11,305 nucleotides of DNA from Spirochaetaceae bacterium (GTDB taxonomy: Bacteria > Spirochaetota > Spirochaetia > SZUA-6 > Fen-1364), in contig PMDT01000057.1 of NCBI GenBank assembly GCA_003154555.1, positions 1 to 11,305 of the forward strand. The letters are read 5' to 3'. Under the pieces are notes generated by a model that was not told the origin of the DNA, did no database searches, and was given only the letters and a program-made list of their open reading frames with translations. How positions within the stretch are numbered: the stretch's first letter is position 1; each line of letters begins with the position of its first letter. A program made the translations under genes and the position numbers. Below are positions 1,575 to 11,186 of the stretch, in pieces.

Positions 1575-3605
1575 CTACGGCGCCTGGGTCTTTTCGAAGC
1601 CTACCGACATGTGATTCTCCCAGGTCTCCCTTGAGCCGAGCTCCAATCCCCAGAGCGGCACGAAGCAATGCGACTGGAACTCGCTCTGCCCGGCGCGTGA
1701 CGAGGTCCGCACAGGCACGCTCCAGGATCGGAAGGACTTTGCCGACGACAACGTGACGGAGACCTCGTTGCGCACGTCCCGCAGGAGCAGGGCGCCCACC
1801 CCGTCGATCTCCGCGGCATCGGAGCCGAATTCCATCTTCCGGTTCTCCTCGATCTGGAAAAGCCTTCCATGCTCGGGCCCGCGGGCGGCCAGGGAGAGAT
1901 TGATCTCCACCCCGAATGTCGTCCCCAGGTCGGTCTCGGCAAGATTCGTGACGCGATAGTAGACGTCGATCGAGCGGGGGCGGAAAACGAAACGCTTCTC
2001 AATGCGGACGGGAAGCGGGGCCCCGGCAACGAGCACGCAGCCGTCCCGGCGCATCAGGAGCTCGGGCAGAGCGCGATTGAGCTCCACCAGATCGTACAGC
2101 CCGCGCGCGAAATCCCCCGCCTCGCAATGACGACCCGCTTCGAAATCCGTGATCGAACAATCCGACGTGCAGAAATGGTCGATAAAGGCCTTGCGCGGAT
2201 AGGCCGCTGCCGCGCCGGGTTTCGGATCGGCGCCCGTCTCGGCGGGCAGATCGCGATCGACCATCGTGTCCAGGTAGTTCCAGGAGGCGGGAAGAAAGTC
2301 CAGCTCGAAAAGGGCCCCGCCCTCCGTGTGGATGTAGGCGTTGAGCTCCGAGCCCTGGTAGAGATATTCGATGCTTCCGTCCATGTCGAAATCGACGCCG
2401 ATGATCGATGGGGCGAATATCTCGGTGGCGCGTGTGATTTTCTCCGCCTCGATGAGGGACCTGTACGTGGCTTTGCGCAGCTCGTTCTCATATATTCCGC
2501 CCGCTTCTCCATGCCAGTAGGCGTAGTGGCATTGGCCCTTCCACAGCTCGTTCTGCGCGGCCTTCTTCTTGTACTTGTCGCCCCGCACCTGGCTCACCAG
2601 GACGTGGGTATTCATCATCTTGGCGTAGAGAAGCCATGCTTCGGGGTAACGCTCAAGAAAGTTTCGGAAATGCCCACCGACGACGAATTGCTCATCTGCG
2701 ACACCCGTCCGCCCGAGCAGGCGCGCGTACGCCTCCCTCCTGCCGGGAGCAAGGCTCCAGCTCATGATGCTCGCCGAGGCGCTCGCGGGAACGTAGAGCC
2801 TGTGTGTCGGTGGATGATCCTTGAGGAACTGCCCCGCCGTCACCGGCTCCAGCCAGTCGGCGTTCTCCGCGGCGCAGCGGACAAACTCCTCCAGCCAGCC
2901 GTCGCGCAGCAGCGTCGCCGCGGCTGTCGCCCCATCGTCCATGATGACTGCCAGGGGATGCCCCCCGCCGCCGGGTGCGTCAGGTTTCCCGGACGTCGAG
3001 GGCAGATGTCGCAGGCGCTCGATGACCTCCGCGGGCGACGAGGTCGCCGCAAGCCGGGACAGCCTGTCCGCGATGGGCAGGAGCGAAATGATCTTCCCCT
3101 GGTCTTCCATGATGGCGGGCTCCCACAGGAACCCTTCCGTGGCGCCCGCCAGGGCGAACTGCCCGTCGTCGATGAATGTGTAGTCGATGCCACTTGCGCG
3201 GAGCACGGAGGCGAGCGCCGGCTCCCACACCTTCTCCGCGATCCAGCAGCCACGCGGCCGGGTCTCAAAGCGCACGCGCAGCCAGGTCGTCATTTTTTCG
3301 AGTTGTCCCAGCTTGTCGTTCATCGGGAGCAGCGGCAGGATCGGGTCGTAATAGCCGCCGCCAAGGACCTCGACCTGGCCGCGACCGACCATTTCGCCCA
3401 GGAGTGCCAGGAACTCGGGATGTGCCTCCTCCAGCCACTCCATCAGGATACCGCTGTAATGGAGCGTCATGGGAAAGGCCGGGTACCGGTACAGCACCGC
3501 CAGGAGGGGCTTCAGCGCCTCCTGGTAGAGCTGCTCGGCCGATGCTTCGCTTCGCCCAAGGGGGAGATGGTTGTGCGTGCCGACAATGATGCCCGTCCGC
3601 CCCAT
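1575..3605 (-). CDS. GH57 family enzyme, 4-alpha-glucanotransferase / alpha-amylase type with C-terminal DUF1926 domain
   Basis: 676 residues, close to the roughly 660 of the Thermococcus litoralis 4-alpha-glucanotransferase, which it matches along its length. Such enzymes cut and transfer alpha-1,4-glucan chains in the cytoplasm; no signal peptide is present here. Visible landmarks: THNHLP at 10-15 (family HNHQP), GCWIAEKVWEP with the nucleophile Glu124, an Asp pair MDDG at about 222-225 (family HDDGEKFG), KGQCHYAYWHG with GGIY in the middle domain, and a beta-rich C-terminal DUF1926 region including FIDHF and FGVEINL. Two conserved sites are altered: HQP has become HLP, and the EKFG plus about six residues after DDG is missing. 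Activity or specificity may therefore differ from the family. The start has AAAGGAG five bases upstream. It is the last gene of the Rnf operon, an unexpected partner. Confidence 0.9.
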   Translation of the reverse strand: MGRTGIIVGTHNHLPLGRSEASAEQLYQEALKPLLAVLYRYPAFPMTLHYSGILMEWLEEAHPEFLALLGEMVGRGQVEVLGGGYYDPILPLLPMNDKLGQLEKMTTWLRVRFETRPRGCWIAEKVWEPALASVLRASGIDYTFIDDGQFALAGATEGFLWEPAIMEDQGKIISLLPIADRLSRLAATSSPAEVIERLRHLPSTSGKPDAPGGGGHPLAVIMDDGATAAATLLRDGWLEEFVRCAAENADWLEPVTAGQFLKDHPPTHRLYVPASASASIMSWSLAPGRREAYARLLGRTGVADEQFVVGGHFRNFLERYPEAWLLYAKMMNTHVLVSQVRGDKYKKKAAQNELWKGQCHYAYWHGEAGGIYENELRKATYRSLIEAEKITRATEIFAPSIIGVDFDMDGSIEYLYQGSELNAYIHTEGGALFELDFLPASWNYLDTMVDRDLPAETGADPKPGAAAAYPRKAFIDHFCTSDCSITDFEAGRHCEAGDFARGLYDLVELNRALPELLMRRDGCVLVAGAPLPVRIEKRFVFRPRSIDVYYRVTNLAETDLGTTFGVEINLSLAARGPEHGRLFQIEENRKMEFGSDAAEIDGVGALLLRDVRNEVSVTLSSAKSFRSWSVPVRTSSRAGQSEFQSHCFVPLWGLELGSRETWENHMSVGFEKTQAP

Positions 3606-3610
3606 TCACA

Positions 3611-3617
3611 CTCCTTT
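3611..3617 (-). promoter_or_regulatory. Shine-Dalgarno AAAGGAG of the GH57 gene, overlapping the rnfA stop
   Basis: The minus-strand AAAGGAG ends 5 bases before the ATG at 3605 and shares bases with the rnfA stop codon (3616-3618). It is the clearest ribosome-binding site in the operon, so GH57 can be translated independently of rnfA. Confidence 0.8.
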
Positions 3618-4209
3618 AACTGCCCAGGAGACGCAGCAGGAACGTACGATCGAAGGCCATGAACGCATACGCAAGCAGCCCGGCGGAAATCAGGTGGAGG
3701 GGAAAGCCCCGCAGCGCTTCCGGCGTCTGCTCGACGTCGAGCCGCTCGCGGATCGCCGTCATCAGCGCCGTCACGATGAAGTACCCCAACCCAGCGGAGA
3801 GGCCGACGACGACGCTCTGGGACGCGGTGAAGCCCGCGCGGGTGCTGATAAGCACGACGCCGATCGTGGCGCAATTGACGGCGATCTCCGGCAGCGATAT
3901 GCCGGCCGCGTCCAGCAGCCGGGGCATCGCGGCCCGCGCGAGGGCATGCAGGCCGAAAGCGAGCCCGGCGACCAGCAGCACGAAGACGGGCGTGCGCAGG
4001 AACGCGAAACCCAGCGGAGAAAGGACAAGGCTGTCCACGGCCCATCCCGCGAGGTTGGCCAGCGCCATCAGGACCGCCGTGAAGAGCCCGACGATCCGCG
4101 CCGTTCGCATGTCGACCGGGGCGCAGACCCCGGGGGAGACGCCGAGGAGCCTCGAGAGGATCACATTATCGACGAGCGAAAAAGTAAGGATGATGCCCAT
4201 CCAGCTCAT
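3616..4209 (-). CDS. rnfA: Rnf complex membrane subunit RnfA (RnfA/NqrE family), with an altered cysteine ligand
   Basis: 197 residues with about six membrane segments, the usual size for RnfA. Family landmarks are kept in order: LVDNVILSRLLG (family VNNFVL.. FLG), LRTPVFVLLV, ISLPEIAVNCATIG, TAIRERLDV, AFRG-like ALRGFP, and the terminal GLLAYAFMAF. In Rnf and NQR, this protein and RnfE/NqrD pair as inverted homologues and jointly hold an iron-sulfur centre in the membrane through four cysteines. Here Cys113 (VNC) is kept. The first cysteine of the family GLCP motif is Ser25 (GVSP); the only nearby cysteine is Cys29, four residues later. It starts in an ATGA overlap with the rnfE stop. The standard next gene, rnfB, does not follow. 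Family assignment is firm; a working metal centre is doubtful. Confidence 0.9.
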   Translation of the reverse strand: MSWMGIILTFSLVDNVILSRLLGVSPGVCAPVDMRTARIVGLFTAVLMALANLAGWAVDSLVLSPLGFAFLRTPVFVLLVAGLAFGLHALARAAMPRLLDAAGISLPEIAVNCATIGVVLISTRAGFTASQSVVVGLSAGLGYFIVTALMTAIRERLDVEQTPEALRGFPLHLISAGLLAYAFMAFDRTFLLRLLGS

Positions 4210-4892
4210 CGGGGGCCATCCTTCGACGACTCACCCGCCGTACCGGATGCCAGGCGCCGCTTCCGCGCCAGGCGCACAAGGGCGGCAAGGTAGCCCAGGC
4301 AGATCAAGCCGCCTCCGGCGAGCCCCAGCGCGCGGGCGGGGTCGTCGATCAGGCCGGGAACCGCGATCACTCCGCTGAACTGGCCGACGGGGAAAAGGGT
4401 CATGGTCCCGGCACCCAGCACTTCCCGCAGAATCGCAATGAGAATCAGGCAGGCCGCGAATCCGATGCCCCTGCCCAGCGCATCGGCAAGCTCGCGTCCC
4501 ATTGAGGTTCCGCTGTCCACGGCGCGCGTCATGCTGAGAACAAGGAAGTTCACGGCGATCAGGGGTGCATAGATGCCAAGACTCGCGCTCGCCTCCGGGT
4601 CGGCGCTCATGAGAAGGATTTCAAACGATGCCGTGAGCACGGAGCTCACGATGAGCGCAGAGAAAAAGCGGCCCTGCGGAGGCGAGGCGTCCTTCTGCGT
4701 CCCCGGGTTTCCCGCCCTGACGATCAGCGACATGCATGCGCGGGAAAGCAGGAGAACAGCGACAACACCCGCTGCCATCCACAGCGCGTCGATCACCCTG
4801 ACTGCCACGGCGATGGCAGGCGTGAGGCTCATGAGCAGGGCAAGCTCCCCATTGTACGTCGTCACGCCGCCGCGGGTCGCCGACGCATTCAT
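4206..4892 (-). CDS. rnfE: Rnf complex membrane subunit RnfE (RnfE/NqrD family), both conserved cysteines lost
   Basis: 228 residues, about six membrane segments. It aligns to RnfE through LALLMSLTPAIAVAVRVIDAL (family LLGLCPLLAVT..NAL), SLGIYAPLIAVNFLVL (family SLGIFIPLIVTNCIVV), ADALGRGIGF and AILREVLGAGTM (family LREIIGNGT), followed by a hydrophobic C-terminal half and a basic tail. In characterised RnfE and NqrD, the cysteines of the LCP and TNC motifs bind the membrane iron-sulfur centre with RnfA/NqrE. Here these positions are Thr24 and Phe116; I checked the codons as ACG and TTC. The hydrophilic loop at about 60-75 is specific to this protein. The start codon overlaps the rnfD stop (ATGA), which leaves no space for rnfG, whose usual place is between rnfD and rnfE. 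RnfA is excluded by the better match of the neighbouring gene to that family. Confidence 0.87.
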   Translation of the reverse strand: MNASATRGGVTTYNGELALLMSLTPAIAVAVRVIDALWMAAGVVAVLLLSRACMSLIVRAGNPGTQKDASPPQGRFFSALIVSSVLTASFEILLMSADPEASASLGIYAPLIAVNFLVLSMTRAVDSGTSMGRELADALGRGIGFAACLILIAILREVLGAGTMTLFPVGQFSGVIAVPGLIDDPARALGLAGGGLICLGYLAALVRLARKRRLASGTAGESSKDGPR

Positions 4893-5974
4893 TCCCTGCG
4901 CCCCCTGCTCAATGCCGTCGCGCGACCATCGAACCGGCTATCGATAAGCGGCACGACGCAGTTGCCCAGGACGATTGCAACCGCGACCCCGTCACCGAGA
5001 GAACCGAAAAATCTCATGACGAACGCAAGCACACCCAGGCTGATGCCAAAGATGATCTGCCCCCGGCTCGAAAGCGGCGAGGTTACAGGATCGCTTGCCG
5101 CGAAAAGAGCGCCCAGCACGATGCTCCCCGCGAACAGGTGGAATCCGGGTCCGCCCGACAACCAGCTCCCGCCGGATGCGATCCCGCCGAGCGCCAGCGT
5201 CAGGAAAAAAAAGGCGGAAAGAAAGAAAACAGGCACGCGCCAGCGGATGATCTTCCGTCGAAGCAGAAAGGCCGCTCCGACGAGGAGAAGCGGCACGGAA
5301 AGGGCCCCGATCGGACCGGGAGTGCGCCCGATCAGCATGTCGAAGGTTCCAGGCTGCAGAGCGGTCCCCAGGCCCGCGAAGACGTGCGTGTTGATCCAGG
5401 CAATGACCCTCGCGTCGAGATCGCTCCAGCGATAGCCGCTTGCCGCGAGCACCGAAAGCGGCGCGCCTCCTGTGGGCGAGGGAAGCGCCTGGCGCAAAGC
5501 CACCAGTGGCGGCAACGCGGCAGCATTGCGGGCGGCAAATGCCCCGGTCCAGCGGGAGGTCGAGCCCGGCCAGGAGAGAAGAGCAAAAAGCACGCCTCCC
5601 ATTGCCGGGTTCATCCAGTTTCGCCCGAGGCCGCCGAAACTCTGCTTGACGACCAGGATCGCAAATGCAGACGCCGCCGCCGGGACGTAAAGCGGTGTGG
5701 ACGGGGACATGAAAAGACCGACCAGGAGTCCTGTAAGAAACGCACTCCCATCGGTGATTGTCAGTTTCTTTAAAAAGAACGACGAGAGAAGCTCGGCAAG
5801 CAGCGCGGCGCCCACTGAAACGCAGAGGACGATGGCGGCAGGGACCCCAAAGAGGAATATGCCCCAGGCTGCCGCGGGAGCGAGTCCTGCCGCAACGAGC
5901 CAGGCCATGCGGGCGGATGAGGAGCGCATGCCGAGATGGGGTGCCGACGACAGGACGAGCCGGGCAGGCTCCAT
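4889..5974 (-). CDS. rnfD: Rnf complex membrane subunit RnfD (NqrB/RnfD family), covalent FMN site lost
   Basis: 361 residues and about nine to ten membrane segments. RnfD normally forms the ion-conducting core with a covalently bound FMN. Landmarks: VLSSAPHLGMRSS at the N-terminus (family SSSPHIRS), DGSAFLTGLLVGL at 75-87, KQSFGGLGRNWMNPAM at 110-125, IGRTPGPIGAL at 215-224, LGALFAASDPVTSPLSSRGQ at 287-306, and the end motif NCVVPLID. The flavinylation motif, usually S-G-A-T-P-L with FMN on the Thr, reads T-G-G-A-P-L at 168-173. The acceptor is thus Ala171 (codon GCG), with no Ser or Thr in register. I chose the ATG at 5974 because GAAGGA precedes it and MEPARLVLSS resembles the start of the family. 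An in-frame ATG at 5995 adds seven residues and overlaps rnfC. Confidence 0.88.
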   Translation of the reverse strand: MEPARLVLSSAPHLGMRSSSARMAWLVAAGLAPAAAWGIFLFGVPAAIVLCVSVGAALLAELLSSFFLKKLTITDGSAFLTGLLVGLFMSPSTPLYVPAAASAFAILVVKQSFGGLGRNWMNPAMGGVLFALLSWPGSTSRWTGAFAARNAAALPPLVALRQALPSPTGGAPLSVLAASGYRWSDLDARVIAWINTHVFAGLGTALQPGTFDMLIGRTPGPIGALSVPLLLVGAAFLLRRKIIRWRVPVFFLSAFFFLTLALGGIASGGSWLSGGPGFHLFAGSIVLGALFAASDPVTSPLSSRGQIIFGISLGVLAFVMRFFGSLGDGVAVAIVLGNCVVPLIDSRFDGRATALSRGRRE

Positions 5975-5983
5975 GGAAACATG

Positions 5984-5989
5984 TCCTTC
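5984..5989 (-). promoter_or_regulatory. Shine-Dalgarno GAAGGA supporting the rnfD start at 5974
   Basis: GAAGGA on the minus strand lies 9 bases before the ATG at 5974 and overlaps the rnfC stop codon (5988-5990). The alternative ATG at 5995 has only a G-rich stretch upstream. Confidence 0.5.
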
Positions 5990-7295
5990 AGCCATTCCCG
6001 CCCCCGGCAAGAGCCTTCTTGCCTTCGTGAAAGACGGCGACCAGGGGGATATGAGAAGGGCACGCAAACGCGCAGCAGCCGCACTCGGTGCAGCGGGACA
6101 GGCCTTCCCTGTCCGCCGCGGCAAGCGATCCCTGGCGGACAAGCTTGTAGAGGCGCGTCGGAAAGAGGTCCCACGGGCAGACCTCGACGCACGCACCGCA
6201 GCGGATACAGGGCCACTCGGTGCGGGTGCGGGCCGCCGACTCATCGAACACCGTCACACCCGAGGTTCCCTTTGTCACGGGAATATCCAGTGAGCTCACG
6301 GCGACGCCCCGCATCGGCCCACCGATCACGATCTTTCCCGGCGCTGCCAGGAGTCCACCGCATTCCTCGAAGAGGTCCCCCAGGCGCGTGCCCAGTCGAA
6401 CCTTGAGATTCCGCGGTCTGGCGACGGGCGCGCCGGCGACAGTGACGACCCGCTCGATGAGAGGCCTGTCGAGGACGACTGCTTCGTAGACGGCATGCAG
6501 GGTCGCGACATTGAGGATCACTGACCTCCCCGGAGCTCCTTTGACGCCAATGGAGCCCAGGACGATCTGCTCGTGCCCCTGGGGATAGGTGGAAGGAAGG
6601 ATCGCGATGTCACAGGCGAGCTTTGACGTGGCGCATGCCTCCTCGAAAGCCCCGGCCAGCTCCCGTGCATCCTCGCCGAGTGCAAGCACGATGCGTTGCG
6701 GCTCAAGGAGCGCACGGCAGATGCGCAGGGCTTCCGCGATCTCCGCCGTCTTCTCCCGGAGAAGCGCAAAATCCGCGCTGAGCCCCGGCTCGCCGTCGAT
6801 GCCATTGGCGACCAGCAACGCGACGGGGCTTCCGGGGGCGGACGCGAGCTTCAGGTGCGTTGGCATGCGCGATCCACCGAGACCCACGACACCGGCGGAC
6901 TGGATGCGCCCAAGCAACTCGATCCTGGATGCGCCCTCCCATGCCCGTGGCTGCCGCGGCTTGCCGGATTTCCCGAACTCCCCTTCCAGGTCGATCACCA
7001 CTGCCTGGCTCGCGACACCGCCCGGCAGCGTGATGCCCGTGACGGCGACCACGGTGCCAGGAATCGAGGAGTGGACGTTGGCGGACAGCGCACCCTCTGC
7101 CTTGCCGATGAGCATGCCCTCACTGACCTTGTCCCCCTGCTGCACGACACAGCGCGCAGGTGTTCCCGCGTGCTGGAGCAGAGGAATGACGGCACGCGAC
7201 GGCACCAGGGCATTCGCGATGGGTGCCGTGCGCGAAATGTTACTGTCGTTGGGCGGGTTGACGCCGCCATGCGGGAGCTTCCTGGTGTCCGTCAT
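5988..7295 (-). CDS. rnfC: Rnf complex peripheral subunit RnfC with two 4Fe-4S motifs
   Basis: 435 residues, normal RnfC length. RnfC is the cytoplasmic NADH-side subunit, related to NuoF and NqrA. Seen here: an N-terminal biotinyl-lipoyl-like beta region (about 30-105, with VHSSIPGTVV), a Rossmann-like Complex1_51K region (about 130-275, with YPQGHEQ), the SLBB-like segment ending VIGGPMRGVAVSSLDIPVTKGTSG (about 323-346), and two clusters with Cys363/366/369/373 and Cys402/405/408/412. Both 4Fe-4S motifs are intact. The normally strict GLGGAGFP (or GGATFP) is GLGGSRMP at 138-145, and the NAAECEPY segment is NGIDGEPG at 164-171. NADH or FMN binding may therefore be changed. The start overlaps the preceding stop by ATGA. 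It is first among the rnf genes, as in rnfCDGEAB operons. Confidence 0.93.
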   Translation of the reverse strand: MTDTRKLPHGGVNPPNDSNISRTAPIANALVPSRAVIPLLQHAGTPARCVVQQGDKVSEGMLIGKAEGALSANVHSSIPGTVVAVTGITLPGGVASQAVVIDLEGEFGKSGKPRQPRAWEGASRIELLGRIQSAGVVGLGGSRMPTHLKLASAPGSPVALLVANGIDGEPGLSADFALLREKTAEIAEALRICRALLEPQRIVLALGEDARELAGAFEEACATSKLACDIAILPSTYPQGHEQIVLGSIGVKGAPGRSVILNVATLHAVYEAVVLDRPLIERVVTVAGAPVARPRNLKVRLGTRLGDLFEECGGLLAAPGKIVIGGPMRGVAVSSLDIPVTKGTSGVTVFDESAARTRTEWPCIRCGACVEVCPWDLFPTRLYKLVRQGSLAAADREGLSRCTECGCCAFACPSHIPLVAVFHEGKKALAGGGNG

Positions 7296-8839
7296 GGAAT
7301 TTGATTTCGCCGCGCGAAGCTATTAAAGCGTAGAAGAATGCCCTCGATCAAGGGTCGCACGCCGGGATCCCGGGCGAGCAGCACGAGCAGCGCCGCCACC
7401 GCCAGGAGAACCGCGAGCAGCTCTCCCGCGATCCAGCGGAACGGCCCCCGCACGGCGACCGCGACAGGCCTTCGCTGCTCCCGGAGGAGGAAAGCGATGC
7501 TTCCCGGCGTGGCGCGTCCGAGAACGCTCCGCAGCCATGTCGTGTCGAAGGTCTTCGCCATCCTCTGACGCTCGGTCACGATCCCGGTCGATCCGTCATT
7601 CACGTAGGTGCGCAGGTAGACGCGCTCATCGGGAGTCGGCAGCCCCCCGCTCCGGCCGAATGCCATCCCTTCCTGCAGCGCCTCATGGAGAACGAGGCTC
7701 GAAAAATCGGGCAGACGGTGCGTGCCTGCCGCGCGGCGGAGCCGTGCGACTGCCGCCCACGAAAAGTCGCGGGCGCCCGGCAGCGGGAGCGGCGTCGGCA
7801 GCGGCGCGTTGCGCAGGAGCGCCACGAGCGCCACGATAATCAGGAAGCACCCGCCGATGAGAAGCGCTGCACGCGCCACGCGGGACGGTTCACGCGCCGG
7901 CCGCACGATCGGGATGGGAGCAAATGCCGCGCGCTTTTTTCTGGTCCGCTTTGCCCTGCCCCAGATTCCCGCGACGCCGGCCAGCAGCAGGAGTGTCCCG
8001 AGAAGCGGTGGAAGATAGGAAAGCACCGGCAGGAGGGAGGGCCCGGCGAGCAGGGTCTGGATCACGAGGCCGGTAACGGCAACTCCCGCTTGCGCGGCCA
8101 GCCAGGGCCGCATCTCGCGCACCAGCTTCTCGTCCCACCCATGGAGCACGACCAGCACCCGCATCAGCTCGGACCACGGCAGGAGGGAAGCCATGGCGAA
8201 TGCGAGCCGGTCCAACCCGCCGGAAAGCACATAGGGTGTCCAGAGAAACGCTGCCGCCGCGGCAAGGGGAAATGCGATGCGGCGCGGCGATTCCTGGCAC
8301 GCGGCAAGCAGGAGCGCGAATCCGAAAAGCCCGAGCACCGCCAGCGATTTCTCCACCGGGTCGAACTCGATGAGACGCCATGAGCCGCGCGCGGGGACGC
8401 CCAGGTGCGCAGCGATGCGCAGGAAGACCCGCGCCGAGGGAAGGCGTGCCGGGATGTATACGAGCTGCGTATCAGCGTCGGGACGGAAGTATCCCTTCGC
8501 CCGGTCCATGAATGCATCGTGACGCGGATCCCGGGGATCGAGACGGGCGTCGAGCCGCGCAATGGAGACGCTCTCCAATCCGGTGAAGCTCCAGAAGTCG
8601 ACCGTCGAGGTCTCCTCCGTCGCCACCCCGGGTCCGAGTGCCCCCGCGACGATCCGCGCGGCCCCCGCGCCGGCGGGCCCTGCCCGGACAAGGAGGGTCT
8701 GGTACCCCCGCCAGACCCGCGTCGCCTGGACCATGGGCACCCGCACCAGCGGGAACCATGCGGCGAGCGCCGCGCAGACGAGCAGTCCCATCCCCCGGAA
8801 CGCGGGGGCCGCGCTCCTTGTTCGGTCGGAGGCGCGCAC
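7292..8839 (-). CDS. Uncharacterised polytopic membrane protein with a large extracytoplasmic N-terminal region
   Basis: About 515 residues from a GTG at 8839 that overlaps the preceding stop (TAGTG). An ATG at 8791 (residue 17) is an alternative; neither has a good Shine-Dalgarno. I do not recognise the family. One membrane segment at about 17-34 is followed by a soluble region of about 125 residues (about 35-160; it includes DFWSFTGLESVSIARLDARLD). Then come about six hydrophobic segments (about 163-181, 187-205, 211-233, 247-265, 268-291, 325-342), a basic cytoplasmic-like loop KRTRKKR at 297-303, a second soluble region (about 345-468), and a last membrane segment at about 470-489. No FMN-binding motif of the RnfG type (S/T-G-A-T/S) was seen, so it is not a disguised RnfG. 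Being translationally coupled to both DUF212 and rnfC, it is a candidate accessory part of the complex. Confidence 0.72.
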   Translation of the reverse strand: MRASDRTRSAAPAFRGMGLLVCAALAAWFPLVRVPMVQATRVWRGYQTLLVRAGPAGAGAARIVAGALGPGVATEETSTVDFWSFTGLESVSIARLDARLDPRDPRHDAFMDRAKGYFRPDADTQLVYIPARLPSARVFLRIAAHLGVPARGSWRLIEFDPVEKSLAVLGLFGFALLLAACQESPRRIAFPLAAAAAFLWTPYVLSGGLDRLAFAMASLLPWSELMRVLVVLHGWDEKLVREMRPWLAAQAGVAVTGLVIQTLLAGPSLLPVLSYLPPLLGTLLLLAGVAGIWGRAKRTRKKRAAFAPIPIVRPAREPSRVARAALLIGGCFLIIVALVALLRNAPLPTPLPLPGARDFSWAAVARLRRAAGTHRLPDFSSLVLHEALQEGMAFGRSGGLPTPDERVYLRTYVNDGSTGIVTERQRMAKTFDTTWLRSVLGRATPGSIAFLLREQRRPVAVAVRGPFRWIAGELLAVLLAVAALLVLLARDPGVRPLIEGILLRFNSFARRNQIP

Positions 8840-9321
8840 TACAGCGTGCAAAAGGCGACCGCGATGAAGAAGCCCAGCAGCGTTCCCACGAACACCTCCG
8901 GCATGGTGTGTCCATGAACCTCTTTCACGAGTCTGCTGCGAAGGGCGAAATGAGGCGAGAGGTCTCTGATTAACTGATTGATCACCTTTGCCTGCGCACC
9001 GGCAGAACGCCGGACGCCCAGCGCGTCCCGCAGGGTGAGCATTGCATAGAAGAGTGTCACGAAGAAAAGGGTCGAATCGGGGCCCTCGACGAATGCCGCG
9101 GAGGTCGCGAGCGACGCCACGACGGCAGAGTGGCTGCTGGGCATCCCCCCGGTTGCCCAGAAGATGTGGAGCAGGATCTCCCGCGCGGAGCGCGGACGGT
9201 TGCGGACGAGCATGATGCACGATTTGAGGACCTGCGCGACGAGCCAGCTGGAAAGGGCGGAAAGGAAGACAGGGTTCTCGAAGATCCGCGTGAGCAGGTC
9301 GACGGTGCGCTGCGAAAGCAT
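8839..9321 (-). CDS. Divergent PAP2 family protein (DUF212, acid phosphatase/vanadium haloperoxidase-related)
   Basis: 160 residues with about four hydrophobic segments, the usual size for the family. Its core motifs are present: TGGMPSSHSAVVASLAT at 57-73, RDALGVRRSAGAQAKVINQLI at 98-118 (family DA.GVRR.aG.QA..lN.L), and KEVHGHTMPEVFVGTLLG at 133-150. These resemble the phosphate-binding motifs of PAP2 phosphatases (SxxxH and RxxxxxHxxxD) but are rearranged. A membrane lipid-phosphate substrate is only inference, since the family has no settled function. The ATG at 9321 has AAGGGA ten bases upstream; the frame is open farther upstream to 9423, but the added residues show no family similarity. 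It is first in the operon and divergent from the lipid-transport genes. Confidence 0.88.
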   Translation of the reverse strand: MLSQRTVDLLTRIFENPVFLSALSSWLVAQVLKSCIMLVRNRPRSAREILLHIFWATGGMPSSHSAVVASLATSAAFVEGPDSTLFFVTLFYAMLTLRDALGVRRSAGAQAKVINQLIRDLSPHFALRSRLVKEVHGHTMPEVFVGTLLGFFIAVAFCTL

Positions 9322-9331
9322 CGGGTGAGTG

Positions 9332-9337
9332 TCCCTT
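9332..9337 (-). promoter_or_regulatory. Shine-Dalgarno AAGGGA fixing the DUF212 start at 9321
   Basis: Minus-strand AAGGGA ends 10 bases before the ATG. It supports this internal start over the upstream in-frame ATG at 9423, which would fall inside the divergent promoter region. Confidence 0.55.
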
Positions 9338-9388
9338 GGAGCATTCGATTGTGTCAAGCCTGAGCGGCCCCGGAGAAAGGAGAAAATC

Positions 9389-9417
9389 TTGACAGCCGGC
9401 CACGGGGGCACTACTAT
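9389..9417 (+). promoter_or_regulatory. Sigma-70-type promoter of the ABC ATPase / MCE unit
   Basis: A perfect -35 TTGACA (9389-9394) and TACTAT (9412-9417) are separated by the optimal 17 bases. Transcription would start near 9424, giving a leader of about 80 bases before the GTG at 9503. Confidence 0.65.
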
Positions 9418-9418
9418 C

Positions 9419-9430
9419 GACATGCATGTC
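9419..9430. promoter_or_regulatory. 12-bp perfect palindrome over the predicted transcription start, possible operator
   Basis: GACATGCATGTC is a perfect inverted repeat that begins two bases after the -10 hexamer and is centred on the expected +1. A dimeric regulator bound here would block initiation. No regulator gene lies in the window, so this is a positional inference. Confidence 0.35.
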
Positions 9431-9502
9431 CCCGCTGCACAGCGATGATCACGACGGAGGAAAGCGCCCGGCCGCGCCGTGGGTCGTCATCGGGGGCGGG
9501 CG

Positions 9503-10252
9503 GTGATCCGCGCGCGCGACGTGCATTTCTCCTTCCCCGGCCGCGAGGTGCTCCACGAGCTCACCATCGATGTGGAAGAATCCCTCACGACCGTGATCGT
9601 CGGGCGCAGCGGCATCGGCAAGTCGGTCTTCCTGAAATGCATCACGGGTCTCCTCCGGCCCCAGGCGGGGAGCATCACGATCGACGGGGAGGAGGTCGTG
9701 AATGCCGGGCGGGCGGAGCTGCGCTCCATCCGTCGCAAGATCGGCATGTTGTTCCAGGAGGGAGCTCTGTTCGATTCGTTGAATGTGAAGGAGAACGTCG
9801 CCTTTCCACTCGTGTATCACAAATCCGCGACTCCGCGGGAGATCGATATGAAGGTTGACAGCTACCTCGATCTCGTGGGCATGAGGGACAGCGCCACCTC
9901 GATGCCGCAGGAGCTTTCGGGGGGCATGAAGCGCAAGGTGGCCATCGCGCGCGCCATGATCCTGGAGCCGCGTTATCTTCTCTACGATGAGCCGACCTCG
10001 GGTCTGGATCCCGCGAGCTCCGCGATCGTCGAATCGATGATCAAGAGACTCCAGGAGGAGCGGGCAATCACGTCACTCGTTGTCACCCACGATATCGACC
10101 TCACGCGCTTCATCGCGGATCGCATCGCGCTGCTCGAGGACCAGAGAATCATCGCCCAGGCGGGAAGAGAAGACGGGTTTCGGGAGGATTCCCCGATCTA
10201 CGTCCATTTCATTAAAAACCGAGAAAGGATCCGGGCAGAAAATGGCTACTAA
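9503..10252 (+). CDS. mlaF: ABC transporter ATPase of the Mla/Mkl lipid-transport type (MlaF-like)
   Basis: 249 residues from GTG 9503. All ABC motifs are intact: Walker A GRSGIGKS at 34-41, Q-loop Gln85 in MLFQEGALFDSL, signature LSGGMKRKVAIARA at 138-151, Walker B YLLYDEP with Glu163, D-loop SGLD, and His196 in VVTHD. The sequences FQ.GALFDSL.V.ENV.FPL and LSGGM.+KVA are typical of the MlaF/Mkl group, which powers phospholipid movement between the inner and outer membranes with an MlaE permease and an MCE protein. The start is uncertain. GTG 9503 (MIRARDVHFSF) suits the family and has GGGGG upstream; GTG 9479 would add eight residues, and an in-frame TGA at 9446 limits anything longer. It overlaps the MCE gene by 11 bases. 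No permease gene is next to it. Confidence 0.92.
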   Translation: MIRARDVHFSFPGREVLHELTIDVEESLTTVIVGRSGIGKSVFLKCITGLLRPQAGSITIDGEEVVNAGRAELRSIRRKIGMLFQEGALFDSLNVKENVAFPLVYHKSATPREIDMKVDSYLDLVGMRDSATSMPQELSGGMKRKVAIARAMILEPRYLLYDEPTSGLDPASSAIVESMIKRLQEERAITSLVVTHDIDLTRFIADRIALLEDQRIIAQAGREDGFREDSPIYVHFIKNRERIRAENGY

Positions 10253-11186
10253 AGCATCGAGGATCTTCAGGGTCATCGTCATCATTATTCTGGCCCTCGC
10301 GGCCTCCCTCTTTCTCTACCTCCTGATCAATAATTTCCAGTTCACCCGGGGGCTCTCCATCAAGGTGCATTTCTCTTCCGTCGGGGATCTCAACACGGGT
10401 GCCTGGGTGCGAAAGTCGGGCCTCAAGGTAGGCTCGGTGACAAGAATCGCGCCTGCCGAAGATGAGAAGACCATAGTGGCAACAATCACATTCAAGCCCG
10501 GCCAGATCGTGCGTACCGGAGACAAATTCGCCCTCGTCTCCAAGGGCATCCTCGGGGATATGTACATCGAGCAGAATCCCGGGCCCAAGGAAAATCCGCG
10601 CGTGGAGGAAGGTCAGCTCTTCGAGGGCGTGCCCTCCTTCAACATCACCGATGTGCTCGGCGGCGACACGATGGGCATGGTGACCGATATTGCCGGCAGC
10701 TTGAAGAGCGTCCTCGATACCCTCAAGAAAAACCAGGATGCGCTGGACAGCTCGCTGAAGGACATCGCCGCAACGGCGAAGAACGTGCGCATCATCACCG
10801 ACCGCGCAATAACCATGACCGAGTCCGTCCCGGTCATCACGAAACAGATCACCTCTTCCATGGACCAGCTCCAGGCCGCGGTGAAAGACGTGACGGTGAC
10901 AACGGAGAAGCTGCTGGCGAAGCTTGAAACAAACCTCACCAGCAGCGCCGATGACCTGGCCGCGTCCCTCAAGGCCATCCGGCAGAGCAGCGGCACCATT
11001 CAGACCGCCGTCACCCAGCTGACCGCGGAGAAGTCCGTGATCTCAACCCTCAGCTCGCCCGCCGTTGCCCAGAGTCTCGACGCGACGGTGAAAAACCTCG
11101 AAGAGATCTCCCGGGGACTGGTGACCGTGACCCGCGACGCCCAGAAGGTCGTCAGCGGGATCAGCGCGATCTTCGAGACGCAGTAG
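10242..11186 (+). CDS. mlaD: MCE-domain substrate-binding protein, MlaD-like, with long helical tail
   Basis: 314 residues. A single membrane anchor at about 9-30 is followed by an MCE domain at about 38-112. The domain contains VHFSSVGDLNTGAWVRKSGLKVGSVTRI, the usual 'GL..GA.V...G..VG.V' pattern, and ends KGILGDMYIEQNPG. Residues about 145-314 are almost entirely helical, rich in Ala, Ser, Thr and Lys, with regular hydrophobic spacing. This fits the coiled-coil needle or tube extensions of longer MCE proteins. MlaD of E. coli is much shorter (about 183 residues), so this one resembles the Mce/PqiB-style proteins that bridge the periplasm. The start ATG lies inside the last codons of the ATPase gene, with AAAGGA about 12 bases upstream, implying coupled expression and a shared complex. 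A strong terminator follows. Confidence 0.9.
   Translation: MATKASRIFRVIVIIILALAASLFLYLLINNFQFTRGLSIKVHFSSVGDLNTGAWVRKSGLKVGSVTRIAPAEDEKTIVATITFKPGQIVRTGDKFALVSKGILGDMYIEQNPGPKENPRVEEGQLFEGVPSFNITDVLGGDTMGMVTDIAGSLKSVLDTLKKNQDALDSSLKDIAATAKNVRIITDRAITMTESVPVITKQITSSMDQLQAAVKDVTVTTEKLLAKLETNLTSSADDLAASLKAIRQSSGTIQTAVTQLTAEKSVISTLSSPAVAQSLDATVKNLEEISRGLVTVTRDAQKVVSGISAIFETQ

What the first reader, a model, noticed from the sequence alone, without database searches (positions are those of the whole stretch)
3616..7295. A maintained Rnf-like complex stripped of most of its redox-cofactor sites
RnfC, D, E and A are intact, in frame and tightly coupled. Yet the two covalent-FMN sites (RnfG, and the Thr of RnfD) and three of the four cysteines expected to bind the RnfA/RnfE membrane iron-sulfur centre are gone, and RnfB is not in the cluster. 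RnfC keeps both 4Fe-4S clusters. Losses this coordinated, in proteins that otherwise keep their fold and motifs, suggest a changed function rather than decay. Possibilities are an ion pathway driven by other means, a sensory or assembly role, or an alternative electron route through RnfC and the extra membrane protein. I do not know of a described Rnf variant of this kind.
Basis: partly seen in the sequence, partly recalled or inferred. Interest (0 to 1): 0.85.

Follow-up and report, generated by a model that had tools for sequence, protein, structure and literature searches.

The report
Spirochaete Rnf complex, mostly unwired
In a group of uncultured spirochaetes, a well-known membrane ion pump that runs on electrons has lost most of its internal wiring, yet its genes appear to be kept intact by natural selection, so it probably does a different and still unknown job.

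Summary
The operon DUF212–X–rnfC–rnfD–rnfE–rnfA–GH57 (minus strand, 9423–1575) is intact and tightly packed. RnfG and RnfB are absent from it. The RnfD flavinylated Thr is Pro155. RnfA Cys25 is Ser; RnfE Cys25 and Cys108 are Thr and Phe. RnfC keeps all eight Fe-S cysteines, and RnfD keeps the riboflavin ligands.

It is not an isolated oddity. A tree of 101 spirochaete RnfC+RnfD places it in one divergent clade nested among canonical rnfCDGEAB operons at the same locus (22 members, 100/99 support in a 54-row tree). Inside, at least one 2Fe-2S ligand is lost in 11 of 20 rows (outside 0 of 72), and RnfG and RnfB are lost in some lineages. The RnfC 4Fe-4S cysteines and RnfD riboflavin ligands are kept in 24 of 24. 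Rough dN/dS (0.18–0.28) argues against decay.

"Changed function, not decay" is supported. Best reading: a non-pumping Rnf derivative keeping a short cytoplasm–RnfC–riboflavin electron route to an unknown acceptor. Partner and activity are inferred, not shown. It is a new variant of a known kind.

The parts
3616..4209 (-). rnfA: 2Fe-2S ligand Cys25 replaced by Ser (4135-4137); Cys113 kept (3871-3873); cytoplasmic gate Leu108 replaced by Glu (3886-3888)
4206..4892 (-). rnfE: both 2Fe-2S ligands lost (Thr24 at 4821-4823, Phe116 at 4545-4547); Arg123 (4524-4526) at the Na+-site Glu position; clade-specific Cys198 (4299-4301)
4889..5974 (-). rnfD: flavinylated Thr/Ser replaced by Pro155 (5510-5512); riboflavin ligands Asn122 (5609-5611) and Asp295 (5090-5092) kept; new Cys339 (4958-4960)
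5988..7295 (-). rnfC: both 4Fe-4S motifs kept (6177-6209, 6060-6092) and FMN glycine loop kept (6846-6878)
7292..8839 (-). X: multi-TM protein with two extracytoplasmic domains (by model), upstream of rnfC in canonical and reduced operons alike; weak RND-like fold; likely GTG start at 8839
8839..9423 (-). DUF212 (divergent PAP2) membrane protein, first gene of the operon
1575..3605 (-). GH57 / 4-alpha-glucanotransferase, last gene of the operon

Best explanation
A member of a divergent clade of spirochaete Rnf complexes that descends from a normal rnfCDGEAB operon at the same locus (shown by tree and synteny). In this clade the long U-shaped path (ferredoxin - RnfB - 2Fe-2S of RnfA/E - FMN of RnfG - FMN of RnfD) has been dismantled stepwise, while the short cytoplasmic end, the two 4Fe-4S clusters of RnfC next to riboflavin in RnfD, keeps its ligand residues throughout (shown as residue conservation only). 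In the window RnfC also keeps its FMN loop, so the likely electron route is NADH - FMN - two 4Fe-4S - riboflavin, ending at an unknown acceptor at or in the membrane (inferred). RnfA and RnfE remain as a membrane scaffold without their cluster, so the complex should not couple ferredoxin:NAD+ oxidoreduction to ion pumping by the known mechanism (inferred).
For: Single origin: the 22 divergent rows tested form one side of a branch, 100/99 support, nested among canonical operons (54 rows); 24 rows at SH-aLRT 97 in the 101-row tree. Residues inside versus outside: RnfC eight Fe-S Cys 24 of 24 vs 77 of 77; RnfD N123 and D249 24 of 24 vs 77 of 77; RnfA C25 10 of 20 vs 72 of 72; RnfA C113 13 of 20 vs 72 of 72; RnfE C25 16 of 22 vs 74 of 74; RnfE C108 12 of 22 vs 74 of 74. 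In 121 RnfD rows close to the window (window plus 120 listed homologues) Asn122 is kept in 120, while the FMN site is Pro in 100 and Ser/Thr in 5. Purifying selection. RnfG and RnfB absent at the locus; no RnfB over cut-off in G000 or G001. In G007, outside the clade, only RnfC and RnfD remain at the locus.
Against: No activity data. 9 of 20 divergent rows keep all four 2Fe-2S cysteines, and 10 of 24 have an RnfB hit, so part of the clade may still use the long path. No acceptor was found: no FMN-binding domain protein was found in G001, and X matched no Pfam family. The RnfC FMN loop Gly-Gly is lost in 19 of 24 divergent rows, so NADH is unlikely as donor there. RnfA and RnfE are conserved (dN/dS 0.26-0.28), which a passive scaffold explains only partly. 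Ligand residues do not prove that riboflavin is bound.
Confidence: 0.43

Rival explanations
1. Non-redox role: the RnfC-D-E-A assembly is kept as a membrane scaffold, ion path or sensor, perhaps for the co-encoded X protein, and electrons no longer matter.
For: Repeated loss of redox sites; gate Leu108 of RnfA is kept in only 4 of 20 divergent rows and Glu115 of RnfE in 0 of 22; X is kept next to rnfC in reduced operons and looks weakly RND-like. In Bacteroides the Rnf membrane part supports toxin action without electron flow (PMC12718326, passages).
Against: All eight RnfC Fe-S cysteines and both riboflavin ligands are kept in 24 of 24 divergent rows, which a non-redox role would not need.
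Confidence: 0.22
2. Ordinary Rnf with parts in trans: RnfB and RnfG come from elsewhere, the FMN of RnfD is bound non-covalently and other residues hold the cluster.
For: The window genome is 69% complete and has apbE and two FMN-binding proteins elsewhere. RnfA has Cys29 close to the lost Cys25. 9 of 20 divergent rows keep all four cluster cysteines.
Against: In congener G001 (91% complete) no FMN-binding domain protein and no RnfB over cut-off were found. The window's apbE/FMN-binding pair at C348 sits with another system. Phe, Trp, Val and Pro replace ligands in the window or relatives.
Confidence: 0.13
3. Slow decay: the complex lost its role and the genes linger in the operon between DUF212 and GH57.
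For: Piecemeal, repeated ligand loss; 12 of 18 further genomes with the divergent copy have a second RnfA/E-type pair of at least 150 bits. G007 has lost rnfE and rnfA at this locus.
Against: dN/dS 0.18-0.28, no stop codons inside the RnfD matches of G000, G001 and G002, 61 RnfE and 68 RnfA positions at least 90% conserved among 121 rows each; no other pair found in G000, G001 and 6 of 18 further genomes.
Confidence: 0.1
4. Neofunctionalised by new ligands: two new intramembrane cysteines, RnfE Cys198 and RnfD Cys339, form or replace a redox or metal site.
For: Cys198 in 111 of 121 and Cys339 in 112 of 121 close rows, above the old ligands (61-85%); in fetched loci neither occurs outside the divergent clade.
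Against: Cys198 is in only 2 of 22 divergent loci and Cys339 in 12 of 24. Distance between them unknown; no complex was modelled; small residues in a helix can be conserved for packing.
Confidence: 0.08

Closest known systems
Rnf complex (ferredoxin:NAD+ oxidoreductase; C. tetanomorphum 7zc6, A. woodii 9eri, A. vinelandii 8ahx)
   Same: Homologous RnfC, D, E, A in the C-D-(G)-E-A order; both RnfC 4Fe-4S motifs, the FMN loop and the riboflavin ligands of RnfD
   Different: No RnfB or RnfG at the locus; RnfD FMN site is Pro; 2Fe-2S site has one of four ligands; Na+-site Glu of RnfE and gate Leu of RnfA changed
Nqr/Rnf-like two-subunit systems (PMC8238504, PMC11334425; passages read)
   Same: Half of the Nqr/Rnf path; RnfD-type subunit without the flavinylated Thr but with an apparent non-covalent flavin site
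   Different: Those fuse RnfD to an NqrF-type NAD domain and have an FMN-binding partner; here RnfC is separate, RnfA/E are kept and no FMN-binding partner is encoded in the operon. The window's genome has a separate set of that known type at C348
Na+-NQR
   Same: Proposed to derive from Rnf after loss of RnfB (PMC4014512, passages); electrons leave from riboflavin to a membrane acceptor, ubiquinone (PMC12174285, passages)
   Different: NQR keeps NqrC, both covalent FMNs and the 2Fe-2S cluster, and NqrA has no cofactors, whereas RnfC here keeps its cluster ligands

Membership tests
Rnf complex | RnfC with FMN/NADH fold and two 4Fe-4S clusters | tested here: met
   TIGR01945 380.5 bits over cut-off 245.95; eight Cys and GG loop
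Rnf complex | RnfD with riboflavin ligands | tested here: met
   PF03116 268.6 bits over 27.7; TIGR01946 205.5, just under its cut-off 207.05; N123 and D249 equivalents present
Rnf complex | RnfA and RnfE membrane pair | tested here: met
   PF02508 105.6 and 80.9 bits over cut-off 23.8; TIGR01943 and TIGR01948 are best NCBIfam hits but well below their cut-offs
Rnf complex | Four Cys holding the 2Fe-2S cluster | tested here: not met
   One of four
Rnf complex | Flavinylated Thr/Ser in RnfD | tested here: not met
   Pro155
Rnf complex | RnfG with covalent FMN in the operon | tested here: not met
   rnfD and rnfE overlap by 4 nt
Rnf complex | RnfB ferredoxin-side subunit | tested here: not met
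   Not in the operon; none over cut-off in G000 or G001, G000 being incomplete
Rnf complex | Ferredoxin:NAD+ activity coupled to ion transport | not testable with these tools
   Needs biochemistry
Nqr/Rnf-like two-subunit system | RnfD domain fused to NAD-binding domain, with FMN-binding partner | tested here: not met
   RnfD has one Pfam domain only; no FMN-binding gene in the operon; met instead at C348 (its RnfD domain scores 26.6, just under the 27.7 cut-off)
Na+-NQR | NqrA/B/D/E type subunits scoring above Rnf models | tested here: not met
   Rnf models score higher than Nqr models for all four
RND superfamily (protein X) | RND fold | tested here: inconclusive

The most novel reading that the evidence does not exclude
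A widespread spirochaete complex built from Rnf parts that is no longer a redox-driven ion pump: only the riboflavin - 4Fe-4S end is under lasting selection, possibly with a new intramembrane site formed by RnfE Cys198 and RnfD Cys339, and it serves a membrane redox or transport task not described for any Rnf or Nqr.
Probability: 0.38. Interest if true: 0.8.

Novelty: new variant of a known kind. Interest (0 to 1): 0.62.

Why it matters
The transmembrane cofactors of Rnf and Nqr are described as strictly conserved (PMC12174285, passages). This clade is a natural dissection of the machine: repeated removal of ligands and subunits thought essential, with the same short segment kept in each case examined. 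It suggests which part has a separable use, gives natural variants for testing which cofactors ion pumping needs, and warns that finding rnfC, D, E and A in a genome does not show an energy-conserving Rnf.

Tried and rejected
Misalignment corrected. In some searches I took TGGAPL of RnfD for the flavinylation site and read canonical spirochaete RnfD as lacking the Thr. One search shows the site lies upstream (DAVTGASPL in L035, ALPPL in the window); the RnfD readings are withdrawn. The RnfA and RnfE readings stand. A note names Pro156; the site is Pro155.

RnfG flavin motif as a clade marker: not clean. The strict motif D-x-x-[ST]-G-A-[ST] is found in 2 of 10 RnfG hits inside the clade but also in only 44 of 75 outside.

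Na+-site Glu of RnfE as a marker: weaker than it first looked. It is Glu in 0 of 22 divergent loci (3 Asp) but Glu in 15 and Asp in 36 of 121 rows close to the window.

X as a new electron carrier: set aside. It is upstream of rnfC in canonical relatives too (64 X-like ORFs among 102 distinct loci), has no Pfam family in the window protein and only single-member weak hits among 57 relatives. Its model (mean pLDDT 88) resembles RND proteins only weakly.

The apbE/FMN-binding pair at G000:C348 as a stand-in for RnfG: it sits with an RnfD–NAD-binding fusion, an Nqr/Rnf-like gene set.

Limits. dS is 1.1–1.8, near saturation, so dN/dS is rough, and only one congener was available. Protein searches list 120 of 431, 136 and 160 hits. 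The genome-contig scan kept 80 of 235 loci and used motifs of the window's RnfD clade, so it is not a random sample. RnfG/RnfB calls depend on contig ends; L055, L057, L075, L079, L125 and L128 are among those cut short. L070 was left out of the trees because of a run of N. The careful tree used 54 of 101 rows: 22 of 24 divergent (L055 and L068 left out as long branches) and 32 of 77 others (L065 and L067 left out as long, further rows for speed). Parsimony changes come from FastTree trees and may include regains. Several rows, the window's among them, have unusual amino-acid make-up.

Full report
What is there. The minus strand carries one tightly packed operon: DUF212 (8839–9423), X (7292–8839, likely GTG start), rnfC (5988–7295), rnfD (4889–5974), rnfE (4206–4892), rnfA (3616–4209) and a GH57 glucanotransferase (1575–3605). 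C to A are recognised by Pfam, and Rnf models of NCBIfam score above Nqr models, although only RnfC passes its NCBIfam cut-off. Stops and starts overlap by 4 nt at X/C, D/E and E/A, so rnfG (between D and E in most of these bacteria) and rnfB (after A) are missing from the operon. The contig is G000:C255, from a 3.47-Mb assembly that is 69% complete, and holds the only RnfA/E-type pair found there.

The cofactor sites. In A. woodii Rnf (PMC11889175, passages and part 1 of section 8 read) the 2Fe-2S cluster is held by C25 and C113 of RnfA and C25 and C108 of RnfE, FMN is attached to T156 of RnfD, and riboflavin is held by N123 and D249 of RnfD. In the window these are Ser, Cys, Thr, Phe, Pro155, Asn122 and Asp295. 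RnfC keeps all eight Fe-S cysteines and the glycine loop of the FMN site. So three of four cluster ligands and the covalent flavin sites are gone, and the RnfC–riboflavin end is intact.

Relatives. Of 61 genomes searched, 59 match RnfD. I fetched 40 neighbourhoods and 80 loci from named genomes; with the window these make 102 distinct loci. Of these, 74 have hits for both RnfG and RnfB, mostly in the order rnfC–D–G–E–A–B–GH57, often with DUF212 and X upstream. RnfG and RnfB are both missing between intact neighbours in the window, G001 (same genus, L033), G002 (same family, L034), three CSSed MAGs (L080, L088, L096; soda-lake origin is my recall), G020 (L070, with a run of N in rnfD) and G007 (L043). 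In G007 rnfE and rnfA are gone as well, leaving X–rnfC–rnfD–GH57.

One clade. A tree of concatenated RnfC+RnfD (101 rows) puts the window in a 24-row clade (SH-aLRT 97). In a careful tree of 54 rows the 22 divergent members included form one side of a branch with 100/99 support, nested among canonical operons. G007 lies outside it, so its reduction is separate. Isolate names point to a fen and to Lac Pavin for two members.

What is kept and what is lost (inside versus outside). Kept: RnfC Fe-S cysteines, all eight in 24 of 24 vs 77 of 77; RnfD N123 and D249, 24 of 24 vs 77 of 77. Lost piecemeal: RnfA C25 kept in 10 of 20 vs 72 of 72; RnfA C113 13 of 20 vs 72 of 72; RnfE C25 16 of 22 vs 74 of 74; RnfE C108 12 of 22 vs 74 of 74. 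Taking the four together, 9 of 20 inside keep all four and 11 have lost one or more, against 72 of 72 kept outside. RnfA gate L108 is kept in 4 of 20 vs 72 of 72. RnfE E115 is Glu in 0 of 22 (Asp in 3) vs 74 of 74, but among 121 rows close to the window it is Glu in 15 and Asp in 36, so that site is eroded rather than uniformly lost. The Gly-Gly of the RnfC FMN loop is kept in 5 of 24 (the window and G001 among them) vs 75 of 77. RnfG hits number 10 of 24 inside and 75 of 77 outside, RnfB hits 10 and 70 (contig ends lower these). The strict flavinylation motif is in 2 of 10 RnfG hits inside and 44 of 75 outside, so it separates the groups poorly. In L093 and L100 the ORF at the RnfG position has no Pfam match. 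Parsimony needs 4 or 5 changes per Cys site on the RnfC+RnfD tree.

The window's close relatives. Among the window and 120 listed homologues each, RnfE keeps both cysteines in 95 of 121, one in 10 and none in 16; RnfA keeps both in 54, one in 46 and none in 21 (some of the single ones are fragments). On their trees RnfA C25 needs 19 changes and C113 12; RnfE sites need 5 and 3. The RnfD site is Pro in 100 of 121 and Ser/Thr in 5, while Asn122 is kept in 120 and Asp295 in 25 of 25 aligned. The Cys losses are therefore stepwise and probably recent compared with the RnfD change, and the congener G001 has the opposite pattern to the window (RnfE C, C; RnfA W, T). Whether the homologues with all four Cys also lack rnfG and rnfB could not be seen.

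Selection. Against G001, rough Nei–Gojobori dN/dS is 0.21 (rnfC), 0.18 (rnfD), 0.28 (rnfE), 0.26 (rnfA), 0.18 (GH57), 0.07 (DUF212) and 0.43 (X); dS is 1.1–1.8, so these are rough. With 61 RnfE and 68 RnfA positions conserved in at least 90% of 121 rows, simple decay is unlikely.

Is it the only Rnf? In G000 and G001 no further RnfA/E-type pair and no RnfB over the cut-off was found, and in G001 no FMN-binding domain protein. G002, G007, G010, G020 and G052 have others. Of 18 further genomes with a divergent copy, 12 have another pair of at least 150 bits and in 6 none was found (their completeness is not given). So the divergent complex is sometimes a second copy and sometimes the only one found.

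Gained features. RnfE Cys198 is present in 111 of 121 and RnfD Cys339 in 112 of 121 rows close to the window, more often than the old ligands. In the fetched loci Cys198 occurs in 2 of 22 divergent rows (window and G001) and Cys339 in 12 of 24; neither occurs outside. By sequence both lie near the charged end of the last helix. Whether they meet is unknown.

Mechanism. In the known scheme (PMC12174285 and PMC9588780, passages) electrons go from ferredoxin through RnfB, the 2Fe-2S cluster, FMN of RnfG, FMN and riboflavin of RnfD, then RnfC to NAD+. In the window every step before riboflavin lacks a subunit or ligand, and the ligands from riboflavin on are kept. The simplest reading is a short electron route between the cytoplasm and RnfD riboflavin. 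In the window the RnfC FMN loop suggests NADH as donor; in most divergent rows that loop is degraded, so another partner would be needed there. The outlet is unknown. This is inference from residues; no activity was tested.

Known relatives. The nearest idea in print is the Nqr/Rnf-like system (PMC8238504, PMC11334425; passages read): half of the path, an RnfD domain without the flavinylated Thr fused to an NAD-binding domain, and an FMN-binding partner. The window's genome has such a set at C348; the operon here is different. Na+-NQR is thought to have arisen from Rnf by loss of RnfB (PMC4014512, passages), a precedent for remodelling. I found no description of this variant in the listings of five searches of the held library or in the passages read; the library lacks most subscription journals.

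Verdict. It is a new variant of a known kind, a natural dissection series of Rnf, with its function open. On checking I lowered two odds slightly (best explanation 0.45 to 0.43, novel case 0.40 to 0.38) and raised one rival (parts in trans, 0.12 to 0.13) because 9 of 20 divergent rows keep all four cluster cysteines.

Noticed in passing
L153:4423-7129 (G000:C348): The window's own genome has an Nqr/Rnf-like set: RnfD-type membrane domain fused to an NAD-binding domain, ApbE, and an FMN-binding protein with an SGAT motif.
   Followed up: partly
L154:3729-4712 (G000:C121): A second FMN-binding protein, with a DAVSGAT motif and a hydrophobic stretch before it, not beside any Rnf gene in the ORFs listed.
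   Followed up: no
window 7292-8839: Protein X: confident model (mean pLDDT 88) with several TM helices and two extracytoplasmic domains; top structural matches are mostly RND-type proteins, but weak.
   Followed up: partly
L043:3090-9065 (G007): X-rnfC-rnfD-GH57 with rnfG, E, A and B all gone at this locus, RnfD keeping DAVTGAS; the genome has other RnfA/E-type genes.
   Followed up: partly
L093:7109-7564 and L100:7136-7579: ORFs in the RnfG position without an FMN-binding domain match; both complexes lack the two RnfA cysteines but keep an RnfB.
   Followed up: partly
L053, L080, L083, L126 and others of the divergent clade: The RnfC FMN glycine loop is degraded in 19 of 24 rows while all Fe-S cysteines stay, so RnfC there may not use NADH.
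   Followed up: partly
window 4299-4301 and 4958-4960: Two intramembrane cysteines special to the window's relatives (RnfE Cys198, RnfD Cys339), more conserved there than the old cluster ligands.
   Followed up: partly
window 9479-11186: Neighbour on the other strand: MlaF-like ABC ATPase and MlaD/MCE protein, presumably lipid transport.
   Followed up: no
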